From positions 1 through 59,053 of the forward strand of contig LJUR01000001.1 in NCBI GenBank assembly GCA_001304105.1: a stretch of DNA of 59,053 nucleotides, written 5' to 3'. Source of the stretch: Deltaproteobacteria bacterium SM23_61 (GTDB lineage Bacteria > Desulfobacterota > SM23-61). The notes under the pieces were generated by a model that did no database searches, had not been told where the DNA came from, and saw only the letters and a list, made by a program, of their open reading frames with translations. Of this stretch, positions 23,279-41,297 are shown piece after piece. The position numbers and the translations under genes are program-made. Numbering within the stretch: position 1 is the stretch's first letter; the number at the start of each line of letters is the position of its first letter.

Positions 23279-26200
23279 CTAGAAACCCAGCTGAGCCCTG
23301 GCCTTCTCGATCTGCTGCTTATACTCCCGGGCTTTGTTCCTATAGTCGTCTTGGGCCTCGGTCAAGAGCCGGTTGGCCAGTCGATCTGCCTTCCTGAATT
23401 CCGTCCTGGCCTCGGCCATAAGGCTGCTGTTGGCGAGATGAAGGGCCTTCTGAAAGTTCGCGATCATGAGGTAATAAACGGCCGGCATATTCTCTCCGTC
23501 TCTCTTCAGAAGTCCGGACATCGCTTCCTCGAGCTGCCTCATCTTTTCGACATTATCCAGCTTGCCGAGGGAGGCCAGGGCCGCGTTGGTCAGAAGAGCG
23601 TGCTTGTTCCGCTTTAGCGTCGCCACGTCCTTGGCCTCGAGCTGCTGCCGGGCCCCTTCAAGCCATGTCTCTATATCGCTGTCGATGTCCAGAATCAGCG
23701 ACCCGGCTTCTATGGGCTTATTCTCAATCCAGTCGCTATAGCACTTAACCAAGCTGTCGAGAACGGCCTGGCTGGCCGGATTCTCTTTCATCTGCATCCG
23801 GAGGACCTTCAACGCTCCCCGGTAGTTCTTGCTTTTCAACAAACCGTCGATCTCACCGGGGAGCTTTAGCGAATTCAAGTGCTTCCGGCATTCCTCCCGT
23901 CCTTCCTTCCAGAATCCGTTCTTAGCCGCCGCTTCCAGGAAGGGAATCGCCTTCTCCGGCACTCTCTGCTTATGATATAGGATGAAAAGGTGCTGGGCCG
24001 GACCGGTCAAAGCGGGATACCTTCTGCACCTCTCCTCTAAAAACTTCGCCGCCGCCCCTGAACCATCCGTGCCTTTCAGCGACTTTATCACTTCCTCGGG
24101 ATAGAAGCGTGAGGCTTCATCAATGGCTTTTAAAACGTTCTTCAAGTTTTCGTCATTTCTATCCGCAAGCTTTTCCCAGAACGGGCGGTATCTAGTTAGC
24201 CCTGCCGCCAGCTTCCAGAACAGGTCTTCCCGGCGTTTCCTGTCCACCCGGTCATCAAAAAGGTATTGGAGCACCATCACGGTATGTCCCGTAACCATGA
24301 AGTCGAGGGTTTCAATGACCGCTGACGCCTCCCCCGCCCGGAGGGAGCTGACGGCAGATTCTTGGTAGTCTGCGCTCGTACCGGTGGGGAGCATGTTGAG
24401 ACGGTCAAGCAGAGGGAGGAAATCAACAGACTTGATTTTGTGGATCCAATCCTTCGAGTCACGCAAGGCCACGAAGAAGGTTTTTTTCAGCCGATAAACA
24501 TCGGCAATCCAGTGGACATACTTCTCTTCGTCACGGTCAAAATCAATGTTCTTAGAAATTGTCCGGCCTTCTGTTCCAGCACACGCCTCGAAAGCCTTCC
24601 GCAGGAGGTCGGAACAGATTTTCCGGAAGCCTTCCTGCGCTTTGGGCGGCAGGTAGGTACAGGCCTCCTGCACAAACGAGAGCATTTCGTCAAGGGCCTT
24701 CTGCCGCCGCTCGGGACCGGCCGTCCTCTCCACTCCGAGGACGAGCGTCGGGGTGTTAAGGTTCATCCTTCTATTCAGGAATTCGGCAACCTTGTGGGAA
24801 ATGAACTCTTCAAGATATCCGGGGCTGTTGGCCACAGAGAGAAGGTTCGTCGCGTCTTTCTTGCCCTGGCGCGCCTCAACCTCGTCCTTTAGGAGTCCGG
24901 CCGAGTAGGCCGAGGCAAAGTCGCGGTGGAAATCCGCCCGCCTCTCGGCATGGGGACGAGGGTCCTGCAGTAGGATATCGCACAGGTAGAGTCTTTCGCC
25001 ATAGGCTCTCCACGCCCCGAGGATCGCAGAATGATCCTTTTCGTTAAGGGATTCGTAGACCGCGATGTTTTTCAGGGCATCGAGGTTGAGCGCATCTTCC
25101 GCAATGAGGTCATTCCATAAGGCCAGAGCCCTCTCCGGCTGGCTCAGCCGATAAAGGAGTTCCGCCGCCTCGGACTTGACCATGGCCCGGAGCGCTTGAA
25201 GGGACGGGTGACGCATATCCGCCTCGGAGTATTCACGGAAGGGCGCCAGTCTCTTTTCGATTACCGCGTCGACTTCCCGGTCGACGAGGTCCAGGGCTTT
25301 CTTAACGCCCTCAATTCCGGCCAGTTTGTCTGGCCATTTCTTCTCAACGGGCCCGAGATCAGGCTTCCCGCCCTCATCCCCGTTTACGACTCCGGACGGA
25401 GGCGCCTCGTCCGGCAAGCCCGAAGCTTCCCGTGCCGCCTGGATGAATCTCCCCAAATCTACCGAAATGTTGACCTCCGACGCCGTCTTCCCCTCAGCCT
25501 GAGATTTGAGGCTCCGGTCGATCCTGTTCTGGACGACGGCCAGGCCTTTGGGCATCTTGAGCTCGTTGAAATTTTTTCGGCAGGTATCTATCCGGTCGAC
25601 GAAATCATTGCCCAGTTCGGCCGCCTTAAGCTTCTGTGCCCGCCCGGTCAGGCTCTGAAGGCGCTCGATACCAGCGTTTCCCACCCTATTGAGCAAGCCG
25701 ATGAACTCCGTAACGGCGGTGTGGTCCTTGACGGCCTGAGAGTATTCTTGGGAATCGCCGATTTTCTTTGACATCGGCTCGAGTTTTGTCTTAAGAAAAG
25801 AAAAGACGTCATACCGAGCCTGTTCCAGCTTGCGGCAGGAGGCTTCGAGTTCCCCGAGAACGTTTCGGGCCCCGGCGACGTCGATCGCTTCCTCCTTCGG
25901 CTTGGCAAGGAGAGCATCGTTCATGGGCGCCGGCTCGGGAGCTTCAAGCTCCTCGGCGGCATTCAGGAGAACCTTGATGAACGTGGCGGCCTTTTTTTCC
26001 GTCTGTTCCCGAGTCTCTCCCCCCTCGGCCGATAGGCCTTCTTTCTCGACAAATCCCCGCGCCAGGCGGTACATCCCGAGGGCCCGGAATTCGAGCGGCT
26101 GTCGGAGAAGCCGTCGGTGGTGGACAAGCGCCGCCAGGAGGGGCGGGATTTTCCCCTCCTTAAGAGCGGAGGCGAGTCGCTGCGGCACGTCCGTGAGCTT

Positions 26201-27058
26201 CGCCTCAAAAAGCTCGCACAGGGTTTCAAGCAGAAGGAGAGATGCATCCTGCGGTTCGTCTGCGAAATTCTTTATGAGTCGCCGGATCGTCGAGACGGGA
26301 TATCCCGCGATCAGCCACTCTATGCCCAGCACGGAAAAGGCCATGTTTCCGCCCGTTCTCTCCCGGCACATCTTGATAATCCGGTCCAGGAGGGGCAGCA
26401 TTTCATCCCGGATTTTCTCTCGCGGCTCCCTTTCAAGGAGGTCTTCAACTATAAGATCGTAAATTCCCGTCCAGCGACAGGTGCCGGCCCCGGAGACGCG
26501 CTTCCAAAGTCCACGGGTAGATTGCGGTTTGGCCGATTCAGGGGCATCCTGTCTCTCCGGCGTCTGCGCGCCTTTGAGCTTGGGAGGGTCAAAATCCAGA
26601 AGATCCTCGGAGAATTCGTCCTGTCCCTCGCTGATCCGGGCGGCGATGTTCTCTCCTCTCAGACGCAACCCGTCTGGTTCGTACCCAGTCTTGCCGTGGT
26701 ATTCTCTGTTGATCTCTTTCTGGAGGAGACTGATGTGGGCCCAGATGCGATGGCTGCTCGGATTGTATTGAGCTGCCCGCCTGATCCAGCCTGACGCTTT
26801 CTTCATCTTGTTCTGGCCGTAGAAGAGCCGGGCCAAATGGTACGCATACCGGGGGTTGGTCCCGTCGATTCTCTGCCCTTCCTTCAGATAGGAAACGGCC
26901 TCGCTCGGCGGCGTGGCCGGGTGGAGGGCTAGGCGGAAGCAGGCTTCGGCCAGGGCTTCGAGCTCTTCGGGAGTGGCCTGTCGTCTTTTCCGCAGCAAGT
27001 GGATACGGCGGACGTGGTCGAGCAGTTTTTCTCTTTCCCACAGAAGCGCCCGCCTCAT
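23279..27058 (-). CDS. 1259-aa helical-repeat (TPR-like) protein, last gene of the Hsp70-TIR operon
   Basis: A very large, almost entirely alpha-helical protein. Residues about 30-115 look like TPR units (EAVSYLKEGQRIDGTNPRYAYHLARLFY in part, KASGWIRRAAQYNP). Residues about 600-720 and 960-1240 again show TPR-like pairs (RALALWNDLIAEDALNLDALKNIAVY in part; RGALKVLRMQMKENPASQ). No signal peptide, membrane segment, Walker motif or protease motif was seen. No enzymatic domain is recognised. It overlaps the TIR gene by four bases (ATGA), so it is translationally coupled to it. Inference: a scaffold or sensor for the TIR effector and the chaperone components. I do not recognise a specific family. 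Confidence 0.8.
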   Translation of the reverse strand: MRRALLWEREKLLDHVRRIHLLRKRRQATPEELEALAEACFRLALHPATPPSEAVSYLKEGQRIDGTNPRYAYHLARLFYGQNKMKKASGWIRRAAQYNPSSHRIWAHISLLQKEINREYHGKTGYEPDGLRLRGENIAARISEGQDEFSEDLLDFDPPKLKGAQTPERQDAPESAKPQSTRGLWKRVSGAGTCRWTGIYDLIVEDLLEREPREKIRDEMLPLLDRIIKMCRERTGGNMAFSVLGIEWLIAGYPVSTIRRLIKNFADEPQDASLLLLETLCELFEAKLTDVPQRLASALKEGKIPPLLAALVHHRRLLRQPLEFRALGMYRLARGFVEKEGLSAEGGETREQTEKKAATFIKVLLNAAEELEAPEPAPMNDALLAKPKEEAIDVAGARNVLGELEASCRKLEQARYDVFSFLKTKLEPMSKKIGDSQEYSQAVKDHTAVTEFIGLLNRVGNAGIERLQSLTGRAQKLKAAELGNDFVDRIDTCRKNFNELKMPKGLAVVQNRIDRSLKSQAEGKTASEVNISVDLGRFIQAAREASGLPDEAPPSGVVNGDEGGKPDLGPVEKKWPDKLAGIEGVKKALDLVDREVDAVIEKRLAPFREYSEADMRHPSLQALRAMVKSEAAELLYRLSQPERALALWNDLIAEDALNLDALKNIAVYESLNEKDHSAILGAWRAYGERLYLCDILLQDPRPHAERRADFHRDFASAYSAGLLKDEVEARQGKKDATNLLSVANSPGYLEEFISHKVAEFLNRRMNLNTPTLVLGVERTAGPERRQKALDEMLSFVQEACTYLPPKAQEGFRKICSDLLRKAFEACAGTEGRTISKNIDFDRDEEKYVHWIADVYRLKKTFFVALRDSKDWIHKIKSVDFLPLLDRLNMLPTGTSADYQESAVSSLRAGEASAVIETLDFMVTGHTVMVLQYLFDDRVDRKRREDLFWKLAAGLTRYRPFWEKLADRNDENLKNVLKAIDEASRFYPEEVIKSLKGTDGSGAAAKFLEERCRRYPALTGPAQHLFILYHKQRVPEKAIPFLEAAAKNGFWKEGREECRKHLNSLKLPGEIDGLLKSKNYRGALKVLRMQMKENPASQAVLDSLVKCYSDWIENKPIEAGSLILDIDSDIETWLEGARQQLEAKDVATLKRNKHALLTNAALASLGKLDNVEKMRQLEEAMSGLLKRDGENMPAVYYLMIANFQKALHLANSSLMAEARTEFRKADRLANRLLTEAQDDYRNKAREYKQQIEKARAQLGF

Positions 27059-28815
27059 CTTAATCCTCCTTTATAAAGCTCGGATAGCTCGGAGATATCG
27101 CGAATCCTCAGCCCCTCATCATCTCCTATCACCAGGCGAGAGGCCGAAAGATCGATGCTGAGGGCGCCCGAGTAATGCGTATAAACGATCCGGCCGTCCC
27201 TCATGAGCGTCCGGAACCCGCTGGGATAGAGGAACACAACGTGCCGGCCGGTATTATCCGAGGAAAGAGGACGGGCCCCTGCCGTGGTGTGGAACTGCTC
27301 CCGGATCACCAGGTCCTGGTCCAGCCGCACTCCCTTCCCGGCTTCGTCGATGGCCAAAAGAAATCCCGGTCCGCGATAGACCGATGAGACGGTCGAGAGG
27401 GGGAGGGTTTCCGTCACCACGCAAAAAGACTCGAGGGAGACCTGGTAGGCCTTGTCTTCTCCAATGATCACGGCGGCTTTCTCGAAAAGCTGGATCCCCA
27501 GGATCGTCTGTTCGAGCCTATCCTGAAAGACGCAGGCCCCGTGATGGAAGGCATGGACTTTTCCTTCAAAATCAGCGAAGACAAGGTGCTTTTCCGATGC
27601 GCCAAGAGCCTGAACGCCCTGCGGATGGCTCAGGACAGGTCGGGGCTGATTCTCCGCCGTGATCTGGAAAACATTTCCGTTCCAGAAGCCGACCACGAGG
27701 CTGCCGTCTAACAGCGCGCAGTCCGCGGGGATAGAATAGCCAGTGCCGGGAGCCAAGGCCTCCGTCCCGGAGAAGCGATAGCTGCTCCGCTCTCTATTTT
27801 CGCGGAGAATCAGGATCTCCCCGGTCCACAGTGCCGCCGCGAGGACGCCGTCCCCTTGACGGATAAACCGGATTGGTCCGCCGAGCGGCATCTGTCCCAG
27901 GCTCCCGCCCTCGGTGTCGAAGAGACTCAATGACGAGCTCGACACTGCGGCCAGCGCCCGCCCGCTCGCGAAGAACACCACGTCTGTGCATCCGCGGCTT
28001 GGGATTAGACCATAAAGGGCTTTCTTCTCAGGCAGTTCTCCCTTCGGTCTGGGCTCGACGGGACGCCTGACCACGTGCTCGAAAACCGAAAAAGGGGCGC
28101 TTTTCCCGGTCCGGTAGCCTTTGGCCTCCGCCACGAGATAGATCCCCGCCGCCTTGGATTTAAACGAGAGGTCGGAGAAGAAGGCTACCCCGCCCGAGGT
28201 CTTGACGGTGAGCGTACCCTGGAGCTCTGCGCCGGGGGCCGAAAGGGACACGGCTTCTTCGCGGAAGTTCTTCTCGCCCCGATTGGAGAGGGCGACCTCC
28301 ATTCTCGGAAGGGTGTTGTGAACGGCGATGTCCTCTGGATGAGTCAGGAAGGACAAGCTGGGCGGCTCGGACTCCTTAATGCGAACAAGGCCCATGTTCT
28401 TGACCAGCCGGCTAAACCAGTCCGGGTTCCGAGTGTCGAGATACTGAATGTGATTGATCTCAAACGGGATTTCCGACTCGGCCTCCGGGTTGATGAGGAT
28501 CGGATTGACTTTGAGCTTCTTGCCGGAGGGGTCAAGCTGGAGCGCCTTCGTCAGCTCCCAACTTGTCATTTCCTTATGAAAGTAGGTTTTGGAATAGACC
28601 AGGATCACTTTTTGGCTTTTTTGGATGGCCCGGCCCAGGGCGATCAAATAGTTCTCGCCCTGGATGATCCCGAGTTCGGAGATGTCGAGAAAAATTCGGG
28701 GGAGTTTCCCGTCGGCCAGGGTGTATTCAAGCAGCGGCCGGTAGAGTTGTTCGCGGACCCAGGTCGAATCATCGCGGGCATAGCTGATAAAGATGTCATA
28801 ATGTTCATCGCTCAT
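27055..28815 (-). CDS. TIR domain - Ig-like - beta-propeller protein
   Basis: A 586-aa protein. The N-terminal TIR domain (about 1-160) starts with YDIFISYARDDS, contains PRIFLDISELGIIQGENY, and has VILVYSKTYFHKEMTSWEL in which E87 (SWEL) occupies the place of the catalytic Glu of TIR NADases. Residues about 175-265 look like a bacterial Ig-like fold (GGVAFFSDLSFKSKAAGIYL). The remainder (about 280-586) is rich in short beta-repeats (VVFFASGRALAAVSSSSLSLFD; LVVGFWNGNVFQI), consistent with a beta-propeller sensor. Many bacterial TIR proteins deplete NAD in defence; here the activity is inferred only from the conserved Glu. GGGAGGAGAG precedes the start. Confidence 0.85.
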   Translation of the reverse strand: MSDEHYDIFISYARDDSTWVREQLYRPLLEYTLADGKLPRIFLDISELGIIQGENYLIALGRAIQKSQKVILVYSKTYFHKEMTSWELTKALQLDPSGKKLKVNPILINPEAESEIPFEINHIQYLDTRNPDWFSRLVKNMGLVRIKESEPPSLSFLTHPEDIAVHNTLPRMEVALSNRGEKNFREEAVSLSAPGAELQGTLTVKTSGGVAFFSDLSFKSKAAGIYLVAEAKGYRTGKSAPFSVFEHVVRRPVEPRPKGELPEKKALYGLIPSRGCTDVVFFASGRALAAVSSSSLSLFDTEGGSLGQMPLGGPIRFIRQGDGVLAAALWTGEILILRENRERSSYRFSGTEALAPGTGYSIPADCALLDGSLVVGFWNGNVFQITAENQPRPVLSHPQGVQALGASEKHLVFADFEGKVHAFHHGACVFQDRLEQTILGIQLFEKAAVIIGEDKAYQVSLESFCVVTETLPLSTVSSVYRGPGFLLAIDEAGKGVRLDQDLVIREQFHTTAGARPLSSDNTGRHVVFLYPSGFRTLMRDGRIVYTHYSGALSIDLSASRLVIGDDEGLRIRDISELSELYKGGLR

Positions 28816-28835
28816 CGGCGCGTCTCTCCTCCCGC

Positions 28836-29702
28836 CTATTGTTTAAAGAGTCGCGTCAAATAATCGAAATCGCCGCTGTTGACAAAATCCAGGAGGCTCT
28901 TAATCCGGAACGGGACAAAGGGGTGGCCGGCGTTCACGCTGATCGGCCCGGCCGCGGGGCTTGTGGAAAGCAGGGGAATCTGGACGGACAGATATTTCTG
29001 GAGGTCAATATTCCGGGCCAGGCCCGCACTCTTGAAGCTCGTGGCCAGGAGGGCCGAAGCGGCTCTCCTCCAGTCTCCGCACAGAATAAGGCCCAATCGG
29101 TCGCAGCGGACTTCCATGGTCCGGCAGTTGGACATGATCCTCTGGTATATCTCCCTCCAAGGAAAGCCCGGGAGGAAAGCCGCCAGCTCCTGTTCCCGGC
29201 TGCCCTCCACGAACTCGCGGATGAGGAAGCTGAGCGAGATCTCCTTGCGCCACTCTCCGGTATAGCCCAACAGATGCCCGGTCTCATGCCCGATGACAAA
29301 GGCCAGTTCAACGATATCGAGGTTTTCGACCAGATCGGTCCCGAGAAGGAGCACCGGCTTCGTCTTGCTCAGGACGCTGACGGCCGACCAGGAGTCGATC
29401 CCTTTGCGGCCGAGCCCGGAGACGACATAGGCCTCGGGCCGGGCCCATCCGGACTGGCTGTACAGATACTCGACCAGATGGTCGAGCCCGGGCAGGACGC
29501 GGTAGTCGATGAGAATTCCGCCGTCGAGGCCGATAATCCGGATCTTTTCCGTCCATTCGTCGTGGCGCTGGAGATAGGGATCGAGCAGCGGGAACGAGCA
29601 GTTTATCTTTTCGAGCGGGAACGGCTCCCACAGCTTTTTGACGTCGACCCTGCCGAGCTTGGGAAGCGAATCCAACTCGACTTGAGAATTCAGAATATCC
29701 AC
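28836..29702 (-). CDS. M48-like zinc metallopeptidase
   Basis: A 288-aa protein with HETGH (H139, E140, H143), the HExxH zinc-metalloprotease motif, inside AFVIGHETGHLLG. The segment EVRCDRLGL (E197, D201) matches the position of the third zinc ligand and Asp in M48 enzymes (ExxxD). Unlike HtpX there are no membrane segments, so it resembles the soluble M48 group. The start is GTG 29702, ten bases after the preceding stop. It sits directly upstream of the TIR gene, so proteolytic activation or control of an operon partner is a reasonable inference; no substrate is known. Confidence 0.82.
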   Translation of the reverse strand: MDILNSQVELDSLPKLGRVDVKKLWEPFPLEKINCSFPLLDPYLQRHDEWTEKIRIIGLDGGILIDYRVLPGLDHLVEYLYSQSGWARPEAYVVSGLGRKGIDSWSAVSVLSKTKPVLLLGTDLVENLDIVELAFVIGHETGHLLGYTGEWRKEISLSFLIREFVEGSREQELAAFLPGFPWREIYQRIMSNCRTMEVRCDRLGLILCGDWRRAASALLATSFKSAGLARNIDLQKYLSVQIPLLSTSPAAGPISVNAGHPFVPFRIKSLLDFVNSGDFDYLTRLFKQ

Positions 29703-29711
29703 GGCTCCGTC

Positions 29712-31757
29712 CTAGAGATTCCTCTCCAACTGCCTGTTGATGTCTCTGACCCTTTCGAGCAGCTTGGACAGGGCATCCTTGGCCTCATAGGAAAATACTT
29801 TGGACTTGTCTTCCTCGATCATCCGGATGAACCCGGAGCTTACTTCGGCCCACATCTGAAGGTCCTGCCGGGACTTTATCGTCTTCCTGTCGTTGAGCCT
29901 GTCGACCATCGTCTTGAAGAACTGGAAATCTTTGTTGAGGATCTCGTTGTCTCCTCCCTCTATGACCTTGCGCCTGATCTTGCTGACTTCTTCAATGTCC
30001 CGAGCAATGATGTCCTTCAACTTCTTCAGCGATTCTTTGGCCTGTTCGGATTTTACGGTGGCGATATCGGTCGTCACCTGTTGTTGGAGGGACTCCAGCC
30101 GCTCGATGATGTCTTCCCTTCCTTGTTCTGTGCTGATGTGCGACTTGGCGTACTCGCGGATCGATTGGAGTTCCTGGCTGGCTTGCTGGATGGCCGCGCT
30201 GTCCCGCTGCGTCGTTTCCAGAGCGGTCATGTTCGCCTTGATTGCAGCCATGAGCTGGGCGAAGACCTTCTTGTTGTCCTGGAAGGTGAGTTTCGGCTGG
30301 ATGGCCTGAGCCCGCTTTTGGAGAGCCTTCATGCATCCGGCAACATCGTGCAGCATCTCGAGGCTGGTGATGCCCGCTTTCGCCGACTCCATGATCTTGG
30401 AGAATTCCATGATGGTCTCATTGACCTGCCTGACTTCCACCTTGAACCGTTCGACGTCCTGCTTCAACCTGTTCAGAAAGGTCAACACGTCGTCGATGCC
30501 CTGGATGAGTTTCTTGGGCTCATCGCTGCTCTTGTCCCGCGCCCCGATCTCCGCGAGATTTCTGGCCTCCTTCAGCTCGGCGATGGCGGCGTCAAAATCG
30601 GTCAGCTTCCTAGCCATGAAGAGGAGGGTGATCTTCCTGTACTTGAGCCCGCCCAACATGAAGTTCACGTAGGGATAAGAAGCGGCATAATTTTTGGCCA
30701 CCCCGAGCTCGCGCTCGGCTTTATCCAGGTCGCCCCGCTGGAGGTAGAGCAAGGAGCGGGCGATGTCCTCACGAACGATGAGGGACTGAAGCACTTCCCG
30801 GTCCTTGGCGGATCCCTGGAATTCGACGTCGCTCGGCACTTTTTTCCTGAAAATCCCGGTGCTGAGGGTTTGCAGGTAGGCGTCGAGCAGGCGATATTCG
30901 CGGGCATCGCGGAACCGGACATCCACCCCGGCCATGTCCTTTCGAGCCTTGCCGAAAGCGCCCTTCCGGTAGAGCCGCACGACCCCCGCCAGCAGCTCCC
31001 CGAGCAGCCGCCTTTCAATTTCGATCTTCAAAAGGCCGAGCTGCTGAGGGTTTTTGAGGAGCGGGTTTTGGAGGGCCTTCGTGACGCAGTCGTGCGCCTC
31101 CTGGGGCCTGCCGGACTCCAGGTAGATGATGGCCAGCAGGAACGGGTAGAACTCAAAGTCCGGGTCGAGGTTGATAAACCCGGCGAGCTCTCGGGCGATC
31201 GTCTCCCGGTTAACGATGAAAAATTGGAGGAGCAGGCGGAATTGAAGGCGGGTCCGCAGCTCGCCCAGAAGTGTATACACCCGGGTCTCCAGCCGGGGAT
31301 CAAGCGGCGTGTCCTTATCCCTCAGCGGATAAAGCGCCTTGAGAGCCTCCATCTCTCTGTTCAACCCGGTATGGCAGAGGGCAACGAGGTAGTGCGCTTC
31401 ATGATGAGTGGGATTGATGGCCAGGACCTGGCCGAGCTCGGTGAGCGCTTCCCGGTACTTCTTCTGGTTGATCAGCAAACGGGCCTGCTGGAGGTGCCGC
31501 TCTTCCGGACGGAGGGCCTTAACCTGATCGACCGTGGTGAGCGCCATGTCGATGTCCACGTCGGTAACGCGGAGTCCGGGTCCCGGCTTCCCTTCGGCAC
31601 CCTTGGCTTTCTCGGACATTTTCTTGATCTCGTCGAGGTAGTTAAACTCAAACTTCTTCTCCTCGAGCTTTATGTCCTCGATCTTGGGCCTTTCATCGAA
31701 GACCAGGGGGGGCGTTTCCTCCTTCCTGAGTGTTGGCGCATCGACAAATTTGGCCAT
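29712..31757 (-). CDS. TPR and coiled-coil protein of the Hsp70-TIR operon
   Basis: A 681-aa soluble protein. After a charged N-terminus (residues 1-75), TPR units are visible (about 85-150: ARLLINQKKYREALTELGQ, VLAINPTHHEAHYLVALCH; about 195-235; about 320-355). The C-terminal 300 residues are long helices with heptad character (about 420-680; VRQVNETIMEFSKIMESA, ESLQQQVTTDIATV, LLERVRDINRQLERNL), typical of coiled coils. No catalytic motif is recognised. AGGAGGGCAG precedes the start. Neighbours on both sides are only about ten bases away, so it is cotranscribed. A scaffold role is inferred. Confidence 0.8.
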   Translation of the reverse strand: MAKFVDAPTLRKEETPPLVFDERPKIEDIKLEEKKFEFNYLDEIKKMSEKAKGAEGKPGPGLRVTDVDIDMALTTVDQVKALRPEERHLQQARLLINQKKYREALTELGQVLAINPTHHEAHYLVALCHTGLNREMEALKALYPLRDKDTPLDPRLETRVYTLLGELRTRLQFRLLLQFFIVNRETIARELAGFINLDPDFEFYPFLLAIIYLESGRPQEAHDCVTKALQNPLLKNPQQLGLLKIEIERRLLGELLAGVVRLYRKGAFGKARKDMAGVDVRFRDAREYRLLDAYLQTLSTGIFRKKVPSDVEFQGSAKDREVLQSLIVREDIARSLLYLQRGDLDKAERELGVAKNYAASYPYVNFMLGGLKYRKITLLFMARKLTDFDAAIAELKEARNLAEIGARDKSSDEPKKLIQGIDDVLTFLNRLKQDVERFKVEVRQVNETIMEFSKIMESAKAGITSLEMLHDVAGCMKALQKRAQAIQPKLTFQDNKKVFAQLMAAIKANMTALETTQRDSAAIQQASQELQSIREYAKSHISTEQGREDIIERLESLQQQVTTDIATVKSEQAKESLKKLKDIIARDIEEVSKIRRKVIEGGDNEILNKDFQFFKTMVDRLNDRKTIKSRQDLQMWAEVSSGFIRMIEEDKSKVFSYEAKDALSKLLERVRDINRQLERNL

Positions 31758-31766
31758 CCTGCCCTC

Positions 31767-32003
31767 CTATTCAGACTCGATGTCGAGGTCGTCGGGCTCG
31801 GGCACCCGCTCGAGCAGCCGCTCGGCCGCCCGCCGGCAAAGCCCGTATTCCCGCTCATGGTCGATCTCTGCCAGCTTGAGGAGCGACCGGGCAAGGCTCA
31901 TCTCCTCGATGACCGAATCCCTGGCTTCCTCCTCGGGACTGAGTTCGATCGGCTCAAGCCGCTTGACCAGGTCCGCCTTTTCGAGCTTGATTTTCTTTCC
32001 CAT
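31767..32003 (-). CDS. Small 78-aa protein of the Hsp70-TIR operon
   Basis: A highly charged, probably helical protein (KKIKLEKADLVKRLEPIEL; SLARSLLKLAEIDHERE; acidic end PEPDDLDIESE). No family is recognised. The start ATG 32003 is preceded by GGGAGGAAAAG; the longer frame beginning at 32087 overlaps the upstream gene and is not needed. Spacing of 22 bases before and nine bases after fits the compact operon. It could be an adaptor for the TPR proteins; that is a guess from context. Confidence 0.72.
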   Translation of the reverse strand: MGKKIKLEKADLVKRLEPIELSPEEEARDSVIEEMSLARSLLKLAEIDHEREYGLCRRAAERLLERVPEPDDLDIESE

Positions 32004-32025
32004 CTTTTCCTCCCTACCCCGATTC

Positions 32026-33849
32026 CTAACGGCCGCCGCCGCTCTCGCCCGTCCCGGGCTTTTCCTCTTCGCCGAGCAGAAACTCACCGGTGCTGAGCAT
32101 GATCTGTTGCTCGGTTGTCTCCAACCGGCGCGCGGAATCGGCCAGCGTCCGGGTGGTCTTGTTGATTTCGGCCATCAGGTCGCTGTAGCGGGCGACGACA
32201 TCGGCGCCGGCGTCTTTGAGTTTTGTCTTCATGATGCCCGTGATCCGCTTGTGCAGAATTTCTCCCCGGGCCTGGATGTCCTTCAGGGTGGCGACCACTT
32301 CGTCGTCCTCCTCGCCGATCGAGACCTCCTCAGCCATACTCCTGAACTTGGAGAACCTCTGGAGCTGATCGCTGACCTCTTTCCTGAGTCGGGCGGGTAT
32401 CGCCCGATCGCCCAGGTATTTTTTGAGAAGGACGATGAAGCGGCGGACGGTATCTCGCTGGTATTCGATCAGCTTCTTCTCCCGCTTGGCGATGATCTCG
32501 GCTTCCGGCACCTTGACTCCGGATTTCTCGAGGCTCTCGACGGCCGTCTCTCGGTGCGTTTCGTAGGCGAAATAGTAATCGACAAGCCCCATTAGGAAGA
32601 GCGGGTCTCCCATGCGGGGGTCGACGGAGCTCACTTTTTCCAGCCGCTCCCTCAGGATTTCTCTCTCCCGATCGGGAAGCCCCGATTTTTCCTTGCGGCG
32701 CAGCCACAAGAAAATCCTGGAAACCGCAAGCCAAAGGAAGGCGTTGCGCAGGAGGAGCCGCTCCTCGCTCAGCAAGGTTCGTTCCGACTCCCCGGTTTCC
32801 TTTCCGGAAGCGGGCGCCTTGGCGGGCTGGCTCAACTCCGCGGCCATTTCCTTTTCCATGCTGGCGACGATCCCGGCCAGGCGGTCATCGACATCGGGAT
32901 AGTCCGTCTTTCGCCATTCGCACAAGAGGAGCCCCAGCTCGGCCATGAGGCCGGACGATTTTTCCTTTTTCGCCTGCTCAAGAGCGCTCTGGAAATTCTC
33001 TTCCGCCTCGTCATAATGCTTATCGAAGAGGGCCAGGATCCCCAAGGTGACTTGGTGGGAGCTGATCGCCTTGGGAACCTGGTCGAGGTGGACGCCGAGT
33101 TTGCGCACCTGGTCGAAGTAGTGAACGGCGGCCTCGATCTCGCGGGCTCTCCAGTGGTCCCGGCCGAGGTGGAGGCAGGCGATGCTCGCCAACTTCTTGG
33201 CCTCGGGCATTCTCTCGACGACACCGTCGTGCTTGACGGCGATTTCGTACGCCTCCTTGTATTCTTCGAGGTTAACCTTGAGCCACAGCCGGAAATACAC
33301 GGTCTCCGGTTCGTCACCCCGGACATTGTCCAGGTCCACGGCGGCCTCTTTGGTCTTCTTCAACCTGGCCCTGACATAGGCAAGGGCAAAATACGCCTCG
33401 GAGACGTCCCCGGCCTTCAGCCCCGAGACGATAGCTCTCTGGAGGATTTCCTCGGCGCGGGGAAATTCCGGCTCGTGATTCCTCTCGATGATTTCGAAAG
33501 CCTCCCCCAGCAGCTTCCGCTTCTTGGCAGGCTGGATCGACAGGAAGTAGAAAAGAATCGCTCCGATCACGGCCAGGAAGACGAGCGAGACGATGAGCAC
33601 GACCGTCATCGGCAGAACGCCTTTTTCCCCTCCCGCGGTTTGAGGCGGAGCCGTTGCCGCTGGTTCCGCCGGCTTTTTGGCGAACTTCTCGACCGGGGCC
33701 GGAGGGCTCTGCGTGCCTTCCTTCAGGTACTTCCAGGTGCCGCCGTCCCGGAGGAGGACCTTCCTCCCGTCCTCGGTCACGACCACCTGATCCGCCCAAC
33801 AGACGGAGACAACGACCAACAGCATGAGGACATACGCGGCGCATCTCAT
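32026..33849 (-). CDS. Membrane-anchored TPR protein of the Hsp70-TIR operon
   Basis: A 607-aa protein with three parts. A signal-type hydrophobic N-terminus (residues 3-19) leads into a short exported segment with TEDGRKVLLRDGGTWKYL, a motif I associate with small envelope proteins, and a Pro/Ala-rich linker. A second membrane segment (about 81-105; MTVVLIVSLVFLAVIGAI) follows. The large C-terminal part holds helical repeats of TPR type (about 120-330; AEEILQRAIVSGLKAGD, YDEAEENFQSALEQAKKEK) and a helical tail. The start ATG 33849 has GAGG upstream; a TTG at 33873 is the alternative. It would tether the complex to the inner membrane and perhaps sense the envelope. Confidence 0.8.
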   Translation of the reverse strand: MRCAAYVLMLLVVVSVCWADQVVVTEDGRKVLLRDGGTWKYLKEGTQSPPAPVEKFAKKPAEPAATAPPQTAGGEKGVLPMTVVLIVSLVFLAVIGAILFYFLSIQPAKKRKLLGEAFEIIERNHEPEFPRAEEILQRAIVSGLKAGDVSEAYFALAYVRARLKKTKEAAVDLDNVRGDEPETVYFRLWLKVNLEEYKEAYEIAVKHDGVVERMPEAKKLASIACLHLGRDHWRAREIEAAVHYFDQVRKLGVHLDQVPKAISSHQVTLGILALFDKHYDEAEENFQSALEQAKKEKSSGLMAELGLLLCEWRKTDYPDVDDRLAGIVASMEKEMAAELSQPAKAPASGKETGESERTLLSEERLLLRNAFLWLAVSRIFLWLRRKEKSGLPDREREILRERLEKVSSVDPRMGDPLFLMGLVDYYFAYETHRETAVESLEKSGVKVPEAEIIAKREKKLIEYQRDTVRRFIVLLKKYLGDRAIPARLRKEVSDQLQRFSKFRSMAEEVSIGEEDDEVVATLKDIQARGEILHKRITGIMKTKLKDAGADVVARYSDLMAEINKTTRTLADSARRLETTEQQIMLSTGEFLLGEEEKPGTGESGGGR

Positions 33850-33879
33850 GTCAAGCCTCTGCTTTCTGAGCAAGAATCC

Positions 33880-35418
33880 TCAATGCCCAGGAGCATAGGT
33901 TCCTCCCTTTTTCTGACGGAGGTCAAACAGCATGGCCTCGAGGCGGCTGTACTCTTTGCCGTATTCGTGTATCTTCTGGGGGTCCATCCTCCGCTCGTCT
34001 CTGACCTTCATCAGCTTCGTCTTTATGCCGGCCAGGAACTCGGACGATTCCTCGAGACGCTCCATGCCGATGAGCGACTCGGCGTAGGCCAGGGTCTTCG
34101 GAAACTCCCACCAGAGAAAGGTGCTCCCTTCAAAGAGGAAATTATAGAGCAGCTTGGCCGCCTGCTCGTGCTTCCGGCGCCAGTTGAAATACCGTGCGGT
34201 GTCAACGACCAAGCCCTTCTGCTCGAGGACCGGAATCCCTTTGAAATCACGGTCAATCATCTCATCGAGCTTCTCCGAGATTGACAGCCTCTGCTCGATC
34301 TGAAGGGCCAGGAGTGCCAGGGTCTCTTTGCGCAGCAGGATCCGGAGCTGGGCCCGCTTGGCCGCAATATTTCCCGCGTCCTTTTTGATGGCCCGCTCGT
34401 ATAGCTGGACCGCTTCAAGCGGGCGTTTCAAATCGTCCTGGGCGATCTCGCCGCCCAGGGCGTATAACTCCGAAGTCGGGTTTTCCAGGTAAACGTCCTG
34501 GAGGAGAGAATAGGCTTTTCCCGCCTGGCCTTTTTCGCGCAATTCCGCCGCCACGCTGTTCGGATCGAAGAATTTCAGCCTCTCCTCGATGGCCTTGGCT
34601 ATATTAAGCGGATTCAGACCGCTCCTTCTCCCGGCATCCGGGTCCACGACGGCTTGGACGGTGGCCAGTATTTCGTTGACCCGCTCGGCCTTGTCCACCC
34701 AGAGGGGGAGCCTTCTCTCCAGGTTCTTGGCGGTGAAGAGCCGGCCCGTGGCCGAGATCGGCAGGAGGCCGTCTGCCTTGAGTTCCGTCCTGAGACCGTA
34801 GAGGCCCTGCATAAGGGCGGCGCCGACCGCGTAAAGATCCAGCCCTTTTTTGCCCGTTGCCGTCGGCTGTCCGCGGAGGACTTCCGGAGCCAGGTATAAA
34901 ATCCTTTCCGCGACGGCGAATAGGGATTCGAGGCGCGGAAAGCCAAGGAAGGCAGGGAGGGCCAAGATAAAGGGATCCTTTTTCAGGAAGCAGATGTCGG
35001 CCGGCATCGGCAGGAAACCTTCGTAGAGGGTTTCCCACCAATAAGGCAGCGCCCGAAGTACCTGAACCCCGTATTCCAGGCGGGCCCGAAGCGGCTGGTC
35101 GCGAACCACGTCCTGCCAGATGACATCCGGCCTCACTTCGTAGCGAACATAGTAGAAGCCCTGGCCGTTGAGGGTCCGCTGGGCGGAATCGACGATCGGA
35201 GCGATCAGCCGCCGGCGGGGCTCACCGATCTGCCGGTGCGTCGCCTCCCGTTTTTCGGCGTCCCGTATGTCGTCAATCGGAATGAGGCGGTAAAGATAGG
35301 AACCCGTCTCTTCCCGGTAAACACCCCCCCAGGCGCTGGCGCCCACCCGTTCGACCCGCCTGTTTGCGCCGTCGCTCGTCTCCAGGGTCAATTTGTGGGG
35401 GAACATATCGGCTCTCAC
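33880..35418 (-). CDS. Pseudokinase - TPR protein
   Basis: A 512-aa protein. Residues about 20-270 follow a protein-kinase fold in degenerate form. GASAWGGVYR (26-35) stands for the glycine loop, R44 in YLYRLIPI lies where the ATP-binding Lys should be, GFLPMPADI (134-142) replaces HRD...N, and LPAF (154-157) replaces DFG. In contrast, LYLAPEVLRGQ (174-184) and GLDLYAVGAAL (192-202) preserve the APE and F-helix signatures. So catalysis is unlikely. Residues about 290-500 are TPR-like (KAYSLLQDVYLENPTSELY, PLEAVQLYERAIKKDAGN). The GTG start overlaps the Hsp70 stop by four bases (GTGA). It is probably a regulatory or docking subunit. Confidence 0.78.
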   Translation of the reverse strand: MRADMFPHKLTLETSDGANRRVERVGASAWGGVYREETGSYLYRLIPIDDIRDAEKREATHRQIGEPRRRLIAPIVDSAQRTLNGQGFYYVRYEVRPDVIWQDVVRDQPLRARLEYGVQVLRALPYWWETLYEGFLPMPADICFLKKDPFILALPAFLGFPRLESLFAVAERILYLAPEVLRGQPTATGKKGLDLYAVGAALMQGLYGLRTELKADGLLPISATGRLFTAKNLERRLPLWVDKAERVNEILATVQAVVDPDAGRRSGLNPLNIAKAIEERLKFFDPNSVAAELREKGQAGKAYSLLQDVYLENPTSELYALGGEIAQDDLKRPLEAVQLYERAIKKDAGNIAAKRAQLRILLRKETLALLALQIEQRLSISEKLDEMIDRDFKGIPVLEQKGLVVDTARYFNWRRKHEQAAKLLYNFLFEGSTFLWWEFPKTLAYAESLIGMERLEESSEFLAGIKTKLMKVRDERRMDPQKIHEYGKEYSRLEAMLFDLRQKKGGTYAPGH

Positions 35419-37499
35419 CGGTCTCTTGCGTCCTCGTGTGCGTCGGCCAGGTCGTCTCCGACCTCTTCCAGCTCTTCCTCGCTTTTGCCCAAATTGAGGG
35501 CGGTGACGAAGGCGTTAAAAGCCGTGAAGAGCTCCCGGTCGAATTTCCTGAGGAGCTGCTTTTTCGCCCGGCGGACGATCTGCTTGAATTGATCGGGGAC
35601 TTCCACGGTCGGAATGAGCAGGCCCTCGATCTGGCCTTCAGCCGGAGGCGGCTCGACCGCTCCCGTGGGCTGGGATAGACCCTGGGCGCGGGGTTCCGCG
35701 GGCGGCGGGGACACGGCCTCCGGGGCAGGACGCGGCGGTTCCGGCGGAGCGCCGGCTGCCCGACCGGCTGGTCCGGCCGGATGAGGGGGCGGGACCACGA
35801 CTTCCGCTTCCCGGGGGACCTGGGCCGCTCTCTGGGCGTAAAGCTTCAGGACCTTGTTGCGCAGGGCGACGAGCGCCTGCTCTCCGCCGACGCTCGTTTT
35901 CTGGTCGAAGCGGGCCTCGTAGGTCTTGTTTTCGTTGATATGATGGACGATCATGCTCAACAGACCGTTCTCATCGAGCTTAAAAGTCACTTCGAACTTA
36001 TGCTCCCCCATGGGCTTCGGCTCCAGGGGGCCCATGTGGAGCGAGCCGATCAGAGTGTTCTCATAGGTAAAACTTCCCTCCCCCTGGAAGACGTTGACAA
36101 TGATCTCCGGGGTCGGACCAGGGTTGGTGAAGCCGCCCCTGGTTATCTCCACGGGAATGCTGGTGGCCTGGTTGACGATCCTCTCGACGCGGCTGTCCTG
36201 GACCTCCACACCCAGCGAATGCTCGGTGATCAGGGGGACGATCACCTGTTCGCCGAAGTCCATATTAAGAGTGCTCTCTTTCCTTTTACGGACATCGAAC
36301 GGAGCGGGAGAGGGGGCAAACTTGTAGGCCATGATCGCGGCTCCCCGGGCGACGACTGAATCCGGGTTGATCTCACCGAGGACGAAGCTCTCGCTTTTCC
36401 CGAAATAGTCAAGGAGAAGGCTCAGGGCCTTCGGGATCTTGGTCGACCCTCCCACCAGCAGGATGGCGTCGATGTGCTCCCTCTTGACCCCCTTATTTTC
36501 GCTGGAAATCTTGATGGCCTCCTCTACCTTGGCCAGGGACCTTTTGAGGAAAGGATCGACAATCTCGTTGAACTTATCCCGGGTCAGGACCAGCTTATAG
36601 ATCTGACGAGAATCGGGAAAGGTCAGTTCGAGCGTCGCTTCCTCGAACGTCGAGAGCAGTATTTTGGCATCCTCGGCCCGGGCTTTGATATAGGCTTCCG
36701 CCAGACGATCGCCCTGGACTTGCCGGCCGTGTTTCTCCTTCAACTCGCCCAGCGCCCATTTCGTGATCGCCTCGTCAAAGTCACTTCCGCCCAGGCGGGA
36801 GTCCCCCGAGGTGGCGACGACGCTGATCTTCTGCTCCTCAACCACGATGATGGACACGTCAAAGGTGCCTCCGCCCAAGTCATAGACTAGGAATGTTTTC
36901 TTACCGGTCTGGAACTTGTCCACGCCGTAGCAGATGGCCGCAGCCGTCGGCTCGGGGATGAGCTGCCGGGGGTAGAGCCCGGCCAGCAGGGCGGCCTCTT
37001 CAGTCGCCTTTTTCTGCTTTTCCGTAAAATAGGCCGGCACCGTCACGACGGCATCGCGGATCTCCTCTCCGATTTCGACCTCGGCAATTTCCTTCATCTT
37101 CGTCAGGATGAAGGCGCTGATCTCTTGGGGTGTAAACCAGCGCTCCTGCTCGGAGAGCCAGGGAATCTGAAGGTGGACCTTAAGCGGATGCTCTACGGAA
37201 TAGAACCGCTCGGCCCCGAACTTTTTCAGCGTCTCCGGCCGGAAGTTCTCGCCCATTTCCCGCTTGATCTCGATGATCGTGTTTTCGGGATCGTTCGCCA
37301 GGTTCCGTTTAGCCGCATACCCGACGATGGCCTTATTGAGTATGGGGTCGAGGCTGACCACCGAGGGTGTCGTCGGCCGGTCACCCTCGGCCTTGTTATT
37401 GATGATCTCCGAAGCCTCGGCAAACTTGTTGTAGGCCGCCACGGCGCTGTAGGTCGTTCCAAGGTCGATGCCTATGACCCGATGGAATTTATCGCTCAT
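35415..37499 (-). CDS. Divergent Hsp70 (DnaK-like) chaperone with atypical C-terminus
   Basis: A 694-aa protein. The ATPase domain (1-390) is well conserved: IGIDLGTTYSAV (9-20), VTVPAYFTEKQKKAT (152-166), VYDLGGGTFDVSI (205-217) and ILLVGGSTKIP (346-356). A beta substrate-binding domain follows (about 410-540; LGVEVQ, IPVEITRGGF). Then comes a Pro/Ala-rich linker (about 565-625), and a short helical tail (637-694; FKQIVRRAKKQLLRKFDREL) instead of the DnaK lid and EEVD-like end. The start 37499 has AAGGAGG at proper spacing; an upstream ATG at 37505 is possible. It lies next to GrpE-like and J-like genes, making a dedicated chaperone set. Confidence 0.9.
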   Translation of the reverse strand: MSDKFHRVIGIDLGTTYSAVAAYNKFAEASEIINNKAEGDRPTTPSVVSLDPILNKAIVGYAAKRNLANDPENTIIEIKREMGENFRPETLKKFGAERFYSVEHPLKVHLQIPWLSEQERWFTPQEISAFILTKMKEIAEVEIGEEIRDAVVTVPAYFTEKQKKATEEAALLAGLYPRQLIPEPTAAAICYGVDKFQTGKKTFLVYDLGGGTFDVSIIVVEEQKISVVATSGDSRLGGSDFDEAITKWALGELKEKHGRQVQGDRLAEAYIKARAEDAKILLSTFEEATLELTFPDSRQIYKLVLTRDKFNEIVDPFLKRSLAKVEEAIKISSENKGVKREHIDAILLVGGSTKIPKALSLLLDYFGKSESFVLGEINPDSVVARGAAIMAYKFAPSPAPFDVRKRKESTLNMDFGEQVIVPLITEHSLGVEVQDSRVERIVNQATSIPVEITRGGFTNPGPTPEIIVNVFQGEGSFTYENTLIGSLHMGPLEPKPMGEHKFEVTFKLDENGLLSMIVHHINENKTYEARFDQKTSVGGEQALVALRNKVLKLYAQRAAQVPREAEVVVPPPHPAGPAGRAAGAPPEPPRPAPEAVSPPPAEPRAQGLSQPTGAVEPPPAEGQIEGLLIPTVEVPDQFKQIVRRAKKQLLRKFDRELFTAFNAFVTALNLGKSEEELEEVGDDLADAHEDARDR

Positions 37500-37524
37500 C
37501 TTCATCCTCCTTGTCTGACGGTTT

Positions 37525-38094
37525 TCAGTACACCAGGCCTTCGCGGCCCAGGACAACACCGCACGGCTTGACGACGGTCTCCCCGGCCCTGTAGCCGGCC
37601 CGGATCGTCCGGACAACCTTGCCTTCCTCGCCAGGGGAAAAATCCAGGCACTCCATGGAGGCGGGATCGAACGGCTCGCCCGGCCCGGCCTCGAACGCGG
37701 TGAAGCCGAGGCCCTTGATGATGTTCCGGAGCATGGCCGAGAGCACCGAGACGTGGTCGCCTTCCGGATCGCTTACCCCCGATTGCGGGGCCTTCTGCAT
37801 GATCTCCAAAGACTCGAGGGTGGGCAACAAAGCGTTGAGAGTGGAGACGGCCAGGAAAGCCTTCCTGTCGGAGAAGAGGGCTTCCTTCAGTTTCTCGATT
37901 TCCAGCCCCAGACTTTTGAGGCCACGGGCCTGGGCTTCCTGAAGCTCGCCGACCGCCGAGACCAAAGTCCGGAGGCTCTCCTCGATCGGGCCGACCCTTT
38001 CGATGAGATGCAGCATGTCGTCCGCCAACTCCTCGACGGTCTCGGCCGTATCCTCAGGGCGCTTCGGGCTTGCGTCGTCCTTCTTGGGCTCCAT
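37525..38094 (-). CDS. GrpE-like nucleotide exchange factor
   Basis: A 189-aa protein with the GrpE outline. An acidic N-terminus leads to a long helix (about 20-90; LADDMLHLIERVGPIEESL, AQARGLKSLGLEIEKLKEAL), a helical middle, and a C-terminal beta domain (about 135-189) containing FDPASMECLD and VVRTIRAGYRAGETVVKPCGVV. The latter corresponds to the GrpE pattern of FDP...H and GY..G..V.RPA.V. GrpE releases ADP from Hsp70. It is divergent from housekeeping GrpE, so it probably serves the adjacent Hsp70 only. The start ATG 38094 overlaps the upstream stop region (TGAGATG). Confidence 0.85.
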   Translation of the reverse strand: MEPKKDDASPKRPEDTAETVEELADDMLHLIERVGPIEESLRTLVSAVGELQEAQARGLKSLGLEIEKLKEALFSDRKAFLAVSTLNALLPTLESLEIMQKAPQSGVSDPEGDHVSVLSAMLRNIIKGLGFTAFEAGPGEPFDPASMECLDFSPGEEGKVVRTIRAGYRAGETVVKPCGVVLGREGLVY

Positions 38095-38095
38095 C

Positions 38096-38707
38096 TCACT
38101 CTCCATCCAGGTAGTCGTTGGGGGAAAAATCCGACTCGAAGTTCTTCCTGGTAAAATCGCTCGGATGGTAGGCGGCCAGTTTTTTTTCTTTCTCCAGGAA
38201 AGCGGCGACTTCCAGCCTGACGAAATGTTGGACGACATGCCGCTCGGCGAAGAGGGGGAAGCTGGGCACGAACAATTTCAGCAGGGCGCAGGGTGGAGTT
38301 TCCAGGTCGTACTTCTTTCGTTCATCCGGGCTCTCGATCCTCATGTTGTTGATTTCGTTGATTTTCTTGGTGATATCCTCGATCTGCTTCCTGAACTCCC
38401 GGTATTTTGGCTCGCATTTCACGGCTTCGTTTTCGAGCGCGGTCAGCTTGAGAAGGGCCTGCTTCAGCTTCGCCGGGTTTTCCGCTTGCTGCCGCTGCTG
38501 CTCGGTGACCGATTTCGCCGCGGCTTCGAGTTCGGGGATCCTGTCATAAACGGCCCGGAGTTTTTTCTCCAACTCCTTTTTCTGGTCCATCAGGGAATTC
38601 ACCTGTTCCATCTTGGCCTCCAGGATATCGGCCTGAGTGGCTTCGGGTGAAATGCCGAGTTTATGGTAGAGTGTCCTCCGCGGTTTGGACAGTGGGTAGT
38701 CAAACAC
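38096..38707 (-). CDS. J-domain-like protein with coiled-coil insertion and no HPD motif
   Basis: A 203-aa protein, the first of the operon. TLYHKLGISPEATQADILEA (12-31) matches helices I-II of a J domain. INEIN...SPDERKKYDLE (116-136) matches helices III-IV (family pattern INEAY.VLSDPEKRAxYD). Between them, where the HPD loop should be, lie about 85 residues of charged coiled coil (about 30-115), and no HPD tripeptide is present. The C-terminal region (140-203) is unrecognised. The start is GTG 38707 behind GGGAGG. It may bind the operon Hsp70 without stimulating ATPase in the usual way. Assignment rests on the motif match and the GrpE/Hsp70 neighbours. Confidence 0.7.
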   Translation of the reverse strand: MFDYPLSKPRRTLYHKLGISPEATQADILEAKMEQVNSLMDQKKELEKKLRAVYDRIPELEAAAKSVTEQQRQQAENPAKLKQALLKLTALENEAVKCEPKYREFRKQIEDITKKINEINNMRIESPDERKKYDLETPPCALLKLFVPSFPLFAERHVVQHFVRLEVAAFLEKEKKLAAYHPSDFTRKNFESDFSPNDYLDGE

Positions 38708-41287: not shown

Positions 41288-41297
41288 AAGGTCACTT

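What the first reader, a model, noticed from the sequence alone, without database searches (positions are those of the whole stretch)
23279..38707. Ten-gene Hsp70-TIR-M48-TPR operon, candidate undescribed chaperone-controlled effector system
Seen: ten minus-strand genes with overlaps or gaps of at most about 30 bases (J-like, GrpE-like, Hsp70, pseudokinase-TPR, membrane TPR, 78-aa, TPR/coiled coil, M48-like HETGH peptidase, TIR-propeller, 1259-aa helical repeat). Established: TIR domains are NAD-cleaving or signalling effectors, Hsp70/J/GrpE form an ATP-driven client-remodelling cycle, and M48 proteins are zinc proteases. Inference: an ATP-dependent sensor holds a TIR effector on a membrane scaffold, released by remodelling or proteolysis. 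I know no described system with this exact set.
Basis: partly seen in the sequence, partly recalled or inferred. Interest (0 to 1): 0.92.

Follow-up and report, generated by a model that had tools for sequence, protein, structure and literature searches.

The report
Mobile Hsp70-TIR chaperone-effector gene system
A ten-gene bacterial operon pairs a rewired Hsp70 chaperone with a TIR (likely NAD-cutting) protein, and seven of its genes recur in the same order in a distantly related bacterium, so it is a real, rare, transferable system that probably serves defence or self-poisoning, though no function has been tested.

Summary
In detail: ten minus-strand genes lie head to tail (23279-38707; gaps of 30 bases or less). 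The operon is not housekeeping, since a separate dnaK lies on contig C120. One genome scan found the same unit in Nocardia concava: J-like, Hsp70, kinase-like/TPR, membrane TPR, ~77-aa protein, TIR-propeller and ~1200-aa repeat protein, seven genes in the same order. GrpE, the TPR/coiled-coil protein and M48 are absent there, so they look accessory. In Nocardia the block is a low-GC3 island (0.63-0.71 against 0.83-0.93), which fits transfer as a unit. It is rare: 1 of 396 Actinomycetota genomes, and apart from one weak match only the window's own among 395 of its phylum. The two system Hsp70s pair off in a tree (100/99). Both have lost three residues that couple DnaK to J-domains but keep the ATP motifs; their J-like partners lack HPD. 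The kinase-like protein lacks catalytic motifs. The TIR keeps the glutamate used by TIR NADases. I read it as a chaperone-gated TIR effector on a membrane TPR scaffold, probably a conflict system. Function is inferred. I found no description of this set in the papers searched.

The parts
38096..38707 (-). J-like protein, 203 aa: J-domain-like start (LYHKLGISPEATQADI), long coiled-coil-like insert, no HPD; core gene
   Evidence: homologue L021:9139-9582 (E 3e-5)
37525..38094 (-). GrpE-like exchange factor, 189 aa from the ATG with a ribosome site; accessory (absent in the Nocardia locus)
   Evidence: Pfam GrpE E 2e-11; PDB 3a6m E 1.9e-12; start; no match among 19 Nocardia ORFs
35415..37499 (-). 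system Hsp70, 694 aa: intact ATP motifs and beta substrate domain; after it a Pro-rich linker and a C-terminal helical-looking segment instead of a canonical lid; J-contact residues lost; core gene
   Evidence: homologue L021:9497-11548 (E 2e-166)
33880..35418 (-). pseudokinase-TPR protein, 512 aa; core gene
   Evidence: homologue L021:11529-13028 (E 4e-49)
32026..33849 (-). membrane-anchored TPR-like protein, ~607 aa: signal-like segment, short extracytoplasmic stretch, TM near residue 90, TPR-like rest; core gene
   Evidence: hydropathy; TPR below cut-off; homologue L021:13036-14577 (E 1e-46)
31767..32003 (-). 78-aa protein; core gene
   Evidence: counterpart L021:14558-14788, 76 aa, same position; local score 81, 0 of 2000 shuffles reach it
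29712..31757 (-). TPR/coiled-coil protein, 681 aa; accessory
   Evidence: Pfam TPR; no Nocardia homologue; no plasmid match
28836..29702 (-). M48-type metallopeptidase without a membrane segment, HETGH plus EVRCD, 288 aa; accessory
   Evidence: no Nocardia homologue; in 297 phylum genomes the own one plus four weak M48-region matches
27055..28815 (-). TIR protein, 586 aa: TIR domain with conserved Glu87, beta-rich middle, propeller-like end; likely effector; core gene
   Evidence: homologue L021:14815-16569 full length (E 1e-64)
23279..27058 (-). 1259-aa TPR/helical-repeat protein; core gene
   Evidence: homologue L021:16566-20120, residues 13-1159 aligned (E 2e-79)

Best explanation
A horizontally transferred, Hsp70-gated TIR effector system, most likely for biological conflict (phage defence or self-poisoning). 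Shown: a seven-gene core conserved in order and strand between two distant bacteria, with accessory genes inserted in one; an Hsp70 that keeps ATP motifs but lost canonical J-domain contacts; a J-like partner without HPD; a pseudokinase-TPR protein; a membrane-anchored TPR-like protein; a TIR protein with the catalytic glutamate position. Inferred: the Hsp70 is uncoupled from ordinary DnaJ and cycles on the membrane TPR/pseudokinase scaffold, where it holds the TIR-propeller protein (with the ~1200-aa repeat protein) inactive or primed. Infection or proteotoxic stress draws Hsp70 or the J-like sensor away (a guard or threshold switch), the TIR assembles and consumes or converts NAD, and the cell stops growing or dies. 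GrpE, M48 and the extra TPR protein tune reset or turnover in some versions only.
For: Synteny and homology of seven genes. The Nocardia block is a GC3 island. Sporadic distribution, in samples that partly overlap: 1/151, 1/396 and 1/108 in Nocardia's family, phylum and genus, each time the source genome itself; 2/276 in its class (source plus one E 5e-4 match at profile positions 248-381); 2/395 in the window's phylum (own plus one E 4e-5 match in the TPR part). System Hsp70 pair 100/99. J-contact residues changed in 2 of 2 system Hsp70s and kept in 14 of 14 distinct DnaKs aligned; the roles of R167 and D393 read as passages in PMC7289447 and PMC8215388. TIR glutamate aligned with that of a bacterial TIR; the catalytic glutamate is needed for bacterial TIR activity in passages of PMC10022894. 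Neighbouring low-GC AAA-RyR plus SLATT-like pair. Precedents: HSP70-containing conflict systems (PMC7159879, passages and section 29) and DnaJ-dependent phage sensing by bNACHT25 (PMC12169576, abstract).
Against: No activity is tested. Only two loci are known. PADLOC gives weak matches only: a candidate family and other TIR models to the TIR part (best 3e-6 window, 5e-9 Nocardia), one to part of the Nocardia Hsp70 (3.5e-5) and one to the window GrpE (0.03). The Nocardia flanks look metabolic (my reading). The AAA-RyR/SLATT-like neighbours differ strongly in GC, so their proximity may be accidental. Loss of J contacts is not unique: a caspase-Hsp70 fusion lacks two of the three and a second, divergent Nocardia Hsp70 all three. 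Toll-like receptor and MyD88 TIRs are also among the matches (that most of these lack NADase activity is recalled). Both models are of low confidence (pLDDT 56 and 52).
Confidence: 0.5

Rival explanations
1. A membrane-associated chaperone/assembly or stress-signalling module with no conflict role: Hsp70 and TPR-like proteins assemble a surface or envelope complex, and the TIR-propeller protein is a scaffold or regulatory NADase.
For: Several TPR-like proteins and a membrane anchor with an extracytoplasmic stretch in the window version. Recalled, not tested: Myxococcus SglK Hsp70/GrpS needed for extracellular fibrils (a search for both names found no paper).
Against: Rare, sporadic distribution and island-like transfer fit an ordinary envelope function poorly; TIR catalytic position kept.
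Confidence: 0.3
2. The TIR makes a signal nucleotide that opens a membrane effector outside the core (8xMP in Nocardia, the SLATT-like protein in the window), as in two-step Thoeris-like systems.
For: The Nocardia 8xMP gene shares the island's GC3; a protein with sub-cut-off SLATT matches lies next door in the window.
Against: The two membrane proteins are of different families, the window pair has a very different GC, and the 8xMP gene is on the opposite strand.
Confidence: 0.12
3. Chance clustering of unrelated genes.
For: Three genes are not shared with Nocardia.
Against: Seven genes in identical order and strand with sequence similarity in a distant genome.
Confidence: 0.02

Closest known systems
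GAP1-N2 GTPase-centred conflict systems, HSP70 theme (Kaur et al. 2020, PMC7159879)
   Same: HSP70 plus GrpE in one neighbourhood, DnaJ- or TPR-linked proteins, membrane association, predicted conflict role (section 29 read)
   Different: No GTPase or FNIII domain found here; here the set is pseudokinase-TPR, TIR-propeller and a giant repeat protein, and the Nocardia core has no GrpE
Thoeris and other TIR NADase defence systems
   Same: TIR domain with the catalytic glutamate position; NAD is the likely target
   Different: No ThsA-like effector found in the operon; the window TIR matches ThsB only at E 0.029; the switch seems chaperone-based
DnaK/DnaJ/GrpE chaperone machine
   Same: Hsp70 ATP motifs and beta substrate domain; GrpE-like protein in the window
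   Different: Canonical J contacts and HPD lost; no canonical lid; fixed partners and TIR in the same operon
bNACHT25 with host DnaJ (PMC12169576)
   Same: A chaperone lies between phage cue and immune protein (abstract)
   Different: There DnaJ is the host's and the immune protein is a NACHT protein

Membership tests
GAP1-N2 GTPase-centred HSP70 systems | GAP1-N2 GTPase core | tested here: not met
   No GTPase Pfam match in the ten window ORFs or in six of the seven Nocardia system proteins; very divergent ones could be missed
GAP1-N2 GTPase-centred HSP70 systems | FNIII protein fused to DnaJ or TPR | tested here: not met
   No FNIII match in the same scans
GAP1-N2 GTPase-centred HSP70 systems | HSP70 with GrpE | tested here: inconclusive
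   Met in the window; no GrpE in the Nocardia locus
TIR NADases | TIR domain with catalytic glutamate | tested here: met
   Pfam TIR_2 9e-15; Glu87 conserved in both and aligned with the glutamate of bacterial TIR 3h16 (that this is the catalytic one is recalled)
TIR NADases | NAD cleavage | not testable with these tools
   needs an assay
Thoeris | ThsA-type effector beside the TIR gene | tested here: not met
   No such match among ten ORFs by Pfam or eight of them by PADLOC
Housekeeping DnaK | J-domain contacts R167, N170, D393 | tested here: not met
   Q, P and L in both system Hsp70s; kept in 14 of 14 distinct DnaKs aligned
J-domain proteins | HPD motif | tested here: not met
   Absent in both J-like proteins
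Active protein kinases | VAIK Lys, HRD Asp, DFG Asp | tested here: not met
   Absent by my reading of alignment A1; kinase fold supported weakly
M48 metallopeptidases | HExxH plus third zinc ligand | tested here: met
   HETGH and EVRCD (the role of the second motif is recalled), Pfam 1e-6; activity untested
Anti-phage defence system | protects cells against phage | not testable with these tools
   inferred from distribution and domains only

The most novel reading that the evidence does not exclude
A categorically new immune architecture: a dedicated Hsp70 that has given up control by ordinary J-proteins and acts as the infection sensor and safety catch for a TIR enzyme on a membrane TPR/pseudokinase scaffold, a bacterial analogue of chaperone-guarded immune receptors in plants and animals.
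Probability: 0.35. Interest if true: 0.92.

Novelty: new variant of a known kind. Interest (0 to 1): 0.77.

Why it matters
Chaperones guard immune receptors in plants and animals (general knowledge). A compact bacterial operon in which a rewired Hsp70 travels with a TIR enzyme would make chaperone-gated immunity testable in simple cells. The loss of HPD together with its Hsp70 contacts gives a sharp biochemical prediction: an Hsp70 that has escaped DnaJ. The small core (seven genes) makes reconstitution feasible.

Tried and rejected
Viral contigs: five scans (Hsp70, Hsp70 fragment, M48, alignments A3 and A5) found no relative. Plasmids: the window Hsp70 matched 262 records, all under 60% identity and none with 80% of the query covered, 30 of them listed; M48, the Nocardia repeat protein, the TPR/coiled-coil protein and the Nocardia TIR protein matched none. 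Phages: the Nocardia Hsp70 matched 42 records, all under 60%, three with 80% covered, five listed. Chloroflexota: 0 of 301, with no positive control. Weak A1 matches G1219 (E 4e-5; only its short stretch was listed) and G1448 (E 5e-4) were set aside. Besides Nocardia, the other six loci are five Oscillospiraceae (one, L022, is that genome's DnaK; four were not examined) and one Anaerolineae caspase-Hsp70 fusion. The Nocardia J-like protein alone scores barely above shuffles against five J-domains (probability 3.9, against a maximum of 3.2 in 100), so 'J-like' rests mainly on the window protein (44.9) and position. The housekeeping explanation was rejected.

Naming the host failed: the 16S piece of the own genome is about 78% identical at best to the plasmid-borne 16S of the 30 listed of 557 records, which are mostly proteobacterial (14 records showed higher identity over what they matched but were not among the listed rows), and no 16S was found in the Nocardia assembly. 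So 'different phylum' for the two hosts is inferred: the listed genomes of the two phylum samples do not overlap and their DnaKs group apart.

Papers: ten searches were made. Those aimed at this set were; they gave no paper that, from listing or the passages I opened, describes it. Of the listed papers I opened passages or sections of PMC7159879, PMC8195603 and PMC3710099 and the abstract and outline of PMC12169576; the rest I saw as listings only. Subscription papers and most preprints are outside the library. No Rfam match in 19000-46000.

In one search two rows (G033b, G030b) repeat other rows and were dropped from the count of 14; the own DnaK row is a fragment without the first phosphate motif; the caspase-Hsp70 and a divergent Nocardia Hsp70 were not counted as DnaK and have themselves lost J contacts.

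Full report
Observation. The ten ORFs exist as described on the minus strand between 23279 and 38707. Choosing starts by ribosome-site context, the Hsp70 begins at 37499, GrpE at 38094, the membrane protein at 33849 and the small protein at 32003; junctions then run from 4-base overlaps to a 30-base gap. Pfam recognises Hsp70, GrpE, TIR_2 and Peptidase_M48 above cut-off, and TPRs above cut-off in the 1259-aa and TPR/coiled-coil proteins; TPR matches in the membrane and kinase-like proteins are below cut-off; the J-like and small proteins have no meaningful match (the small gene was scanned as its longer 106-aa ORF).

Not housekeeping. The genome (G000, 286 contigs, 88% complete, 7% contamination estimated) holds a separate dnaK on contig C120 with a dnaJ-like gene beside it. 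In a tree of 17 Hsp70 rows the own DnaK groups with DnaK of the same genus and family, while the window Hsp70 does not.

The unit travels. One scan of genome contigs with a 416-aa Hsp70 fragment gave seven loci. The best, Nocardia concava NBRC 100430 (L021), carries in the same order and on one strand: J-like (147 aa), Hsp70 (42% identity), kinase-like/TPR (27%), membrane protein (27%), a 76-aa protein, TIR-propeller (28%) and a 1184-aa repeat protein (26%). Six of the seven pairs match by BLASTP, the five large ones over most of their length. The 76/78-aa pair was not in that comparison; its local alignment scores 81, against a maximum of 52 in 2000 shuffles. The window adds GrpE between J-like and Hsp70, and TPR/coiled coil plus M48 between the small gene and TIR. 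None of these has a significant match among the 19 Nocardia ORFs compared, and at the matching places Nocardia has no room: the J-like gene ends at 9582 with Hsp70 starting at 9575, and the small gene ends at 14788 with TIR starting at 14815. The rest of the Nocardia genome was not searched for the three. So the conserved unit is seven genes, not ten.

Transfer and rarity. In Nocardia the seven genes and an adjoining 8xMP gene have GC3 0.63-0.71, against 0.83-0.93 for the eleven flanking genes measured on both sides, a compositional island. In the window the operon has GC3 0.70-0.83, inside the range of its flanks (0.59-0.86 apart from a transposase and the low-GC pair), while the neighbouring AAA-RyR and SLATT-like genes have 0.43-0.45. 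Profile searches with the kinase-like/TPR pair found little besides the source genomes: 1 of 151 (family of Nocardia), 1 of 396 (phylum), 0 of 301 Chloroflexota without a positive control, 2 of 395 in the window's phylum (own genome plus a weak match in the TPR part), 2 of 276 in the Nocardia class (source plus a weak match). The TIR pair rang in 1 of 108 genomes of the Nocardia genus at E 1e-20. M48 rang in 5 of 297 phylum genomes: the own one and four weak matches. The samples overlap in part, and the large searches score only a few candidates per genome, so absence is soft.

The Hsp70. Window and Nocardia system Hsp70s are sisters with support 100/99 (long branches and unusual composition are flagged there). 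Both keep GIDLGTTYS, DLGGGTFD and the glutamate of EPTAAA. At the positions of E. coli DnaK R167, N170 and D393, both have Q, P and L, while all 14 distinct housekeeping DnaKs aligned have R, N and D. The placing of the numbers on these sequences and the role of N170 are recalled; the roles of R167, D393 and HPD were read as passages in PMC8215388 and PMC7289447: D35 of HPD bonds to R167, changes in HPD abolish stimulation, and changes at R167 or its partners somewhat raise basal activity and make stimulation ineffective. HPD is absent from both J-like proteins. This paired loss is the most telling molecular finding: the ATP cycle is probably uncoupled from ordinary DnaJ. It is not unique: a caspase-Hsp70 fusion lacks two of the three contacts and a divergent Nocardia Hsp70 all three. 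The Pfam match ends at profile position 501 of 599; a proline-rich linker and a conserved, helical-looking C-terminal stretch follow (my reading).

Other parts. The kinase-like half keeps an APE motif and a D-L-Y/F helix start but not the VAIK lysine, HRD or DFG (my reading); a poor model (pLDDT 56) still returns protein kinases at the top, with low TM-scores. The membrane protein has two hydrophobic segments in the window and one in Nocardia. The TIR protein has TIR, a beta-rich middle and a propeller-like end (pLDDT 52). Glu87 is conserved in the pair and lines up with the glutamate of the bacterial TIR 3h16; the catalytic glutamate is required in bacterial TIRs such as AbTIR (PMC10022894 passages). 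M48 has HETGH and a downstream EVRCD and no membrane segment.

Mechanism. Shown: composition, conservation, loss of J-coupling residues, membrane segment, catalytic position. Inferred: Hsp70 on a TPR/pseudokinase membrane scaffold restrains or primes the TIR; a cue that engages Hsp70 or the J-like protein releases it; NAD is consumed. Why conflict: TIR enzyme, rarity, island-like transfer, AAA-RyR/SLATT-like neighbours in the window, published HSP70-containing conflict systems (PMC7159879) and DnaJ-dependent phage sensing (PMC12169576 abstract). Against: PADLOC gives only weak matches, metabolic-looking flanks in Nocardia, no activity data.

Comparison. The nearest published set I found is the HSP70/GrpE theme of GAP1-N2 GTPase systems, which also has DnaJ- or TPR-linked proteins; the defining GTPase and FNIII components are not found here. 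It is not Thoeris (no ThsA found). I therefore call it a new variant of chaperone-coupled conflict systems, with the bolder reading kept in the section on the most novel reading. That the set is undescribed rests on searches in an open-access library only. The window's host could not be named; that it lies in another phylum than Nocardia is inferred.

Noticed in passing
window 39602-43853: Low-GC gene pair: a 577-aa protein with sub-cut-off SLATT-like matches and an 851-aa AAA plus RyR protein; looks like a separate, recently acquired conflict pair next to the operon.
   Followed up: partly
window 18966-19969 and 22976-23246: IS200-type (Y1) transposase gene with a DnaA-like HTH and inverted ends, and a 271-base partial copy (93%) just past the operon's 3' end.
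   Followed up: partly
L027:365-3063: Anaerolineae Hsp70 fused to a caspase domain behind a gene with a sub-cut-off EACC1 match: another Hsp70 in a conflict-like setting.
   Followed up: partly
L021:20113-20787: 8xMP octameric membrane protein gene sharing the system's low GC3, on the opposite strand at the island's end; possible extra effector.
   Followed up: partly
L034:4894-6009 and L050: The dnaJ-like gene near dnaK in this genus lacks HPD in both genomes looked at.
   Followed up: no
L034:2748-4611: The housekeeping dnaK of this assembly is split between two frames on contig C120; assembly error or real frameshift not resolved.
   Followed up: no
window 38934-39404: 156-aa ORF between the operon and the low-GC pair, without any Pfam match.
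   Followed up: no
window 44450-44481 and 52072-52103: 32-base repeat, 97% identical, 7.6 kb apart, meaning unknown.
   Followed up: no
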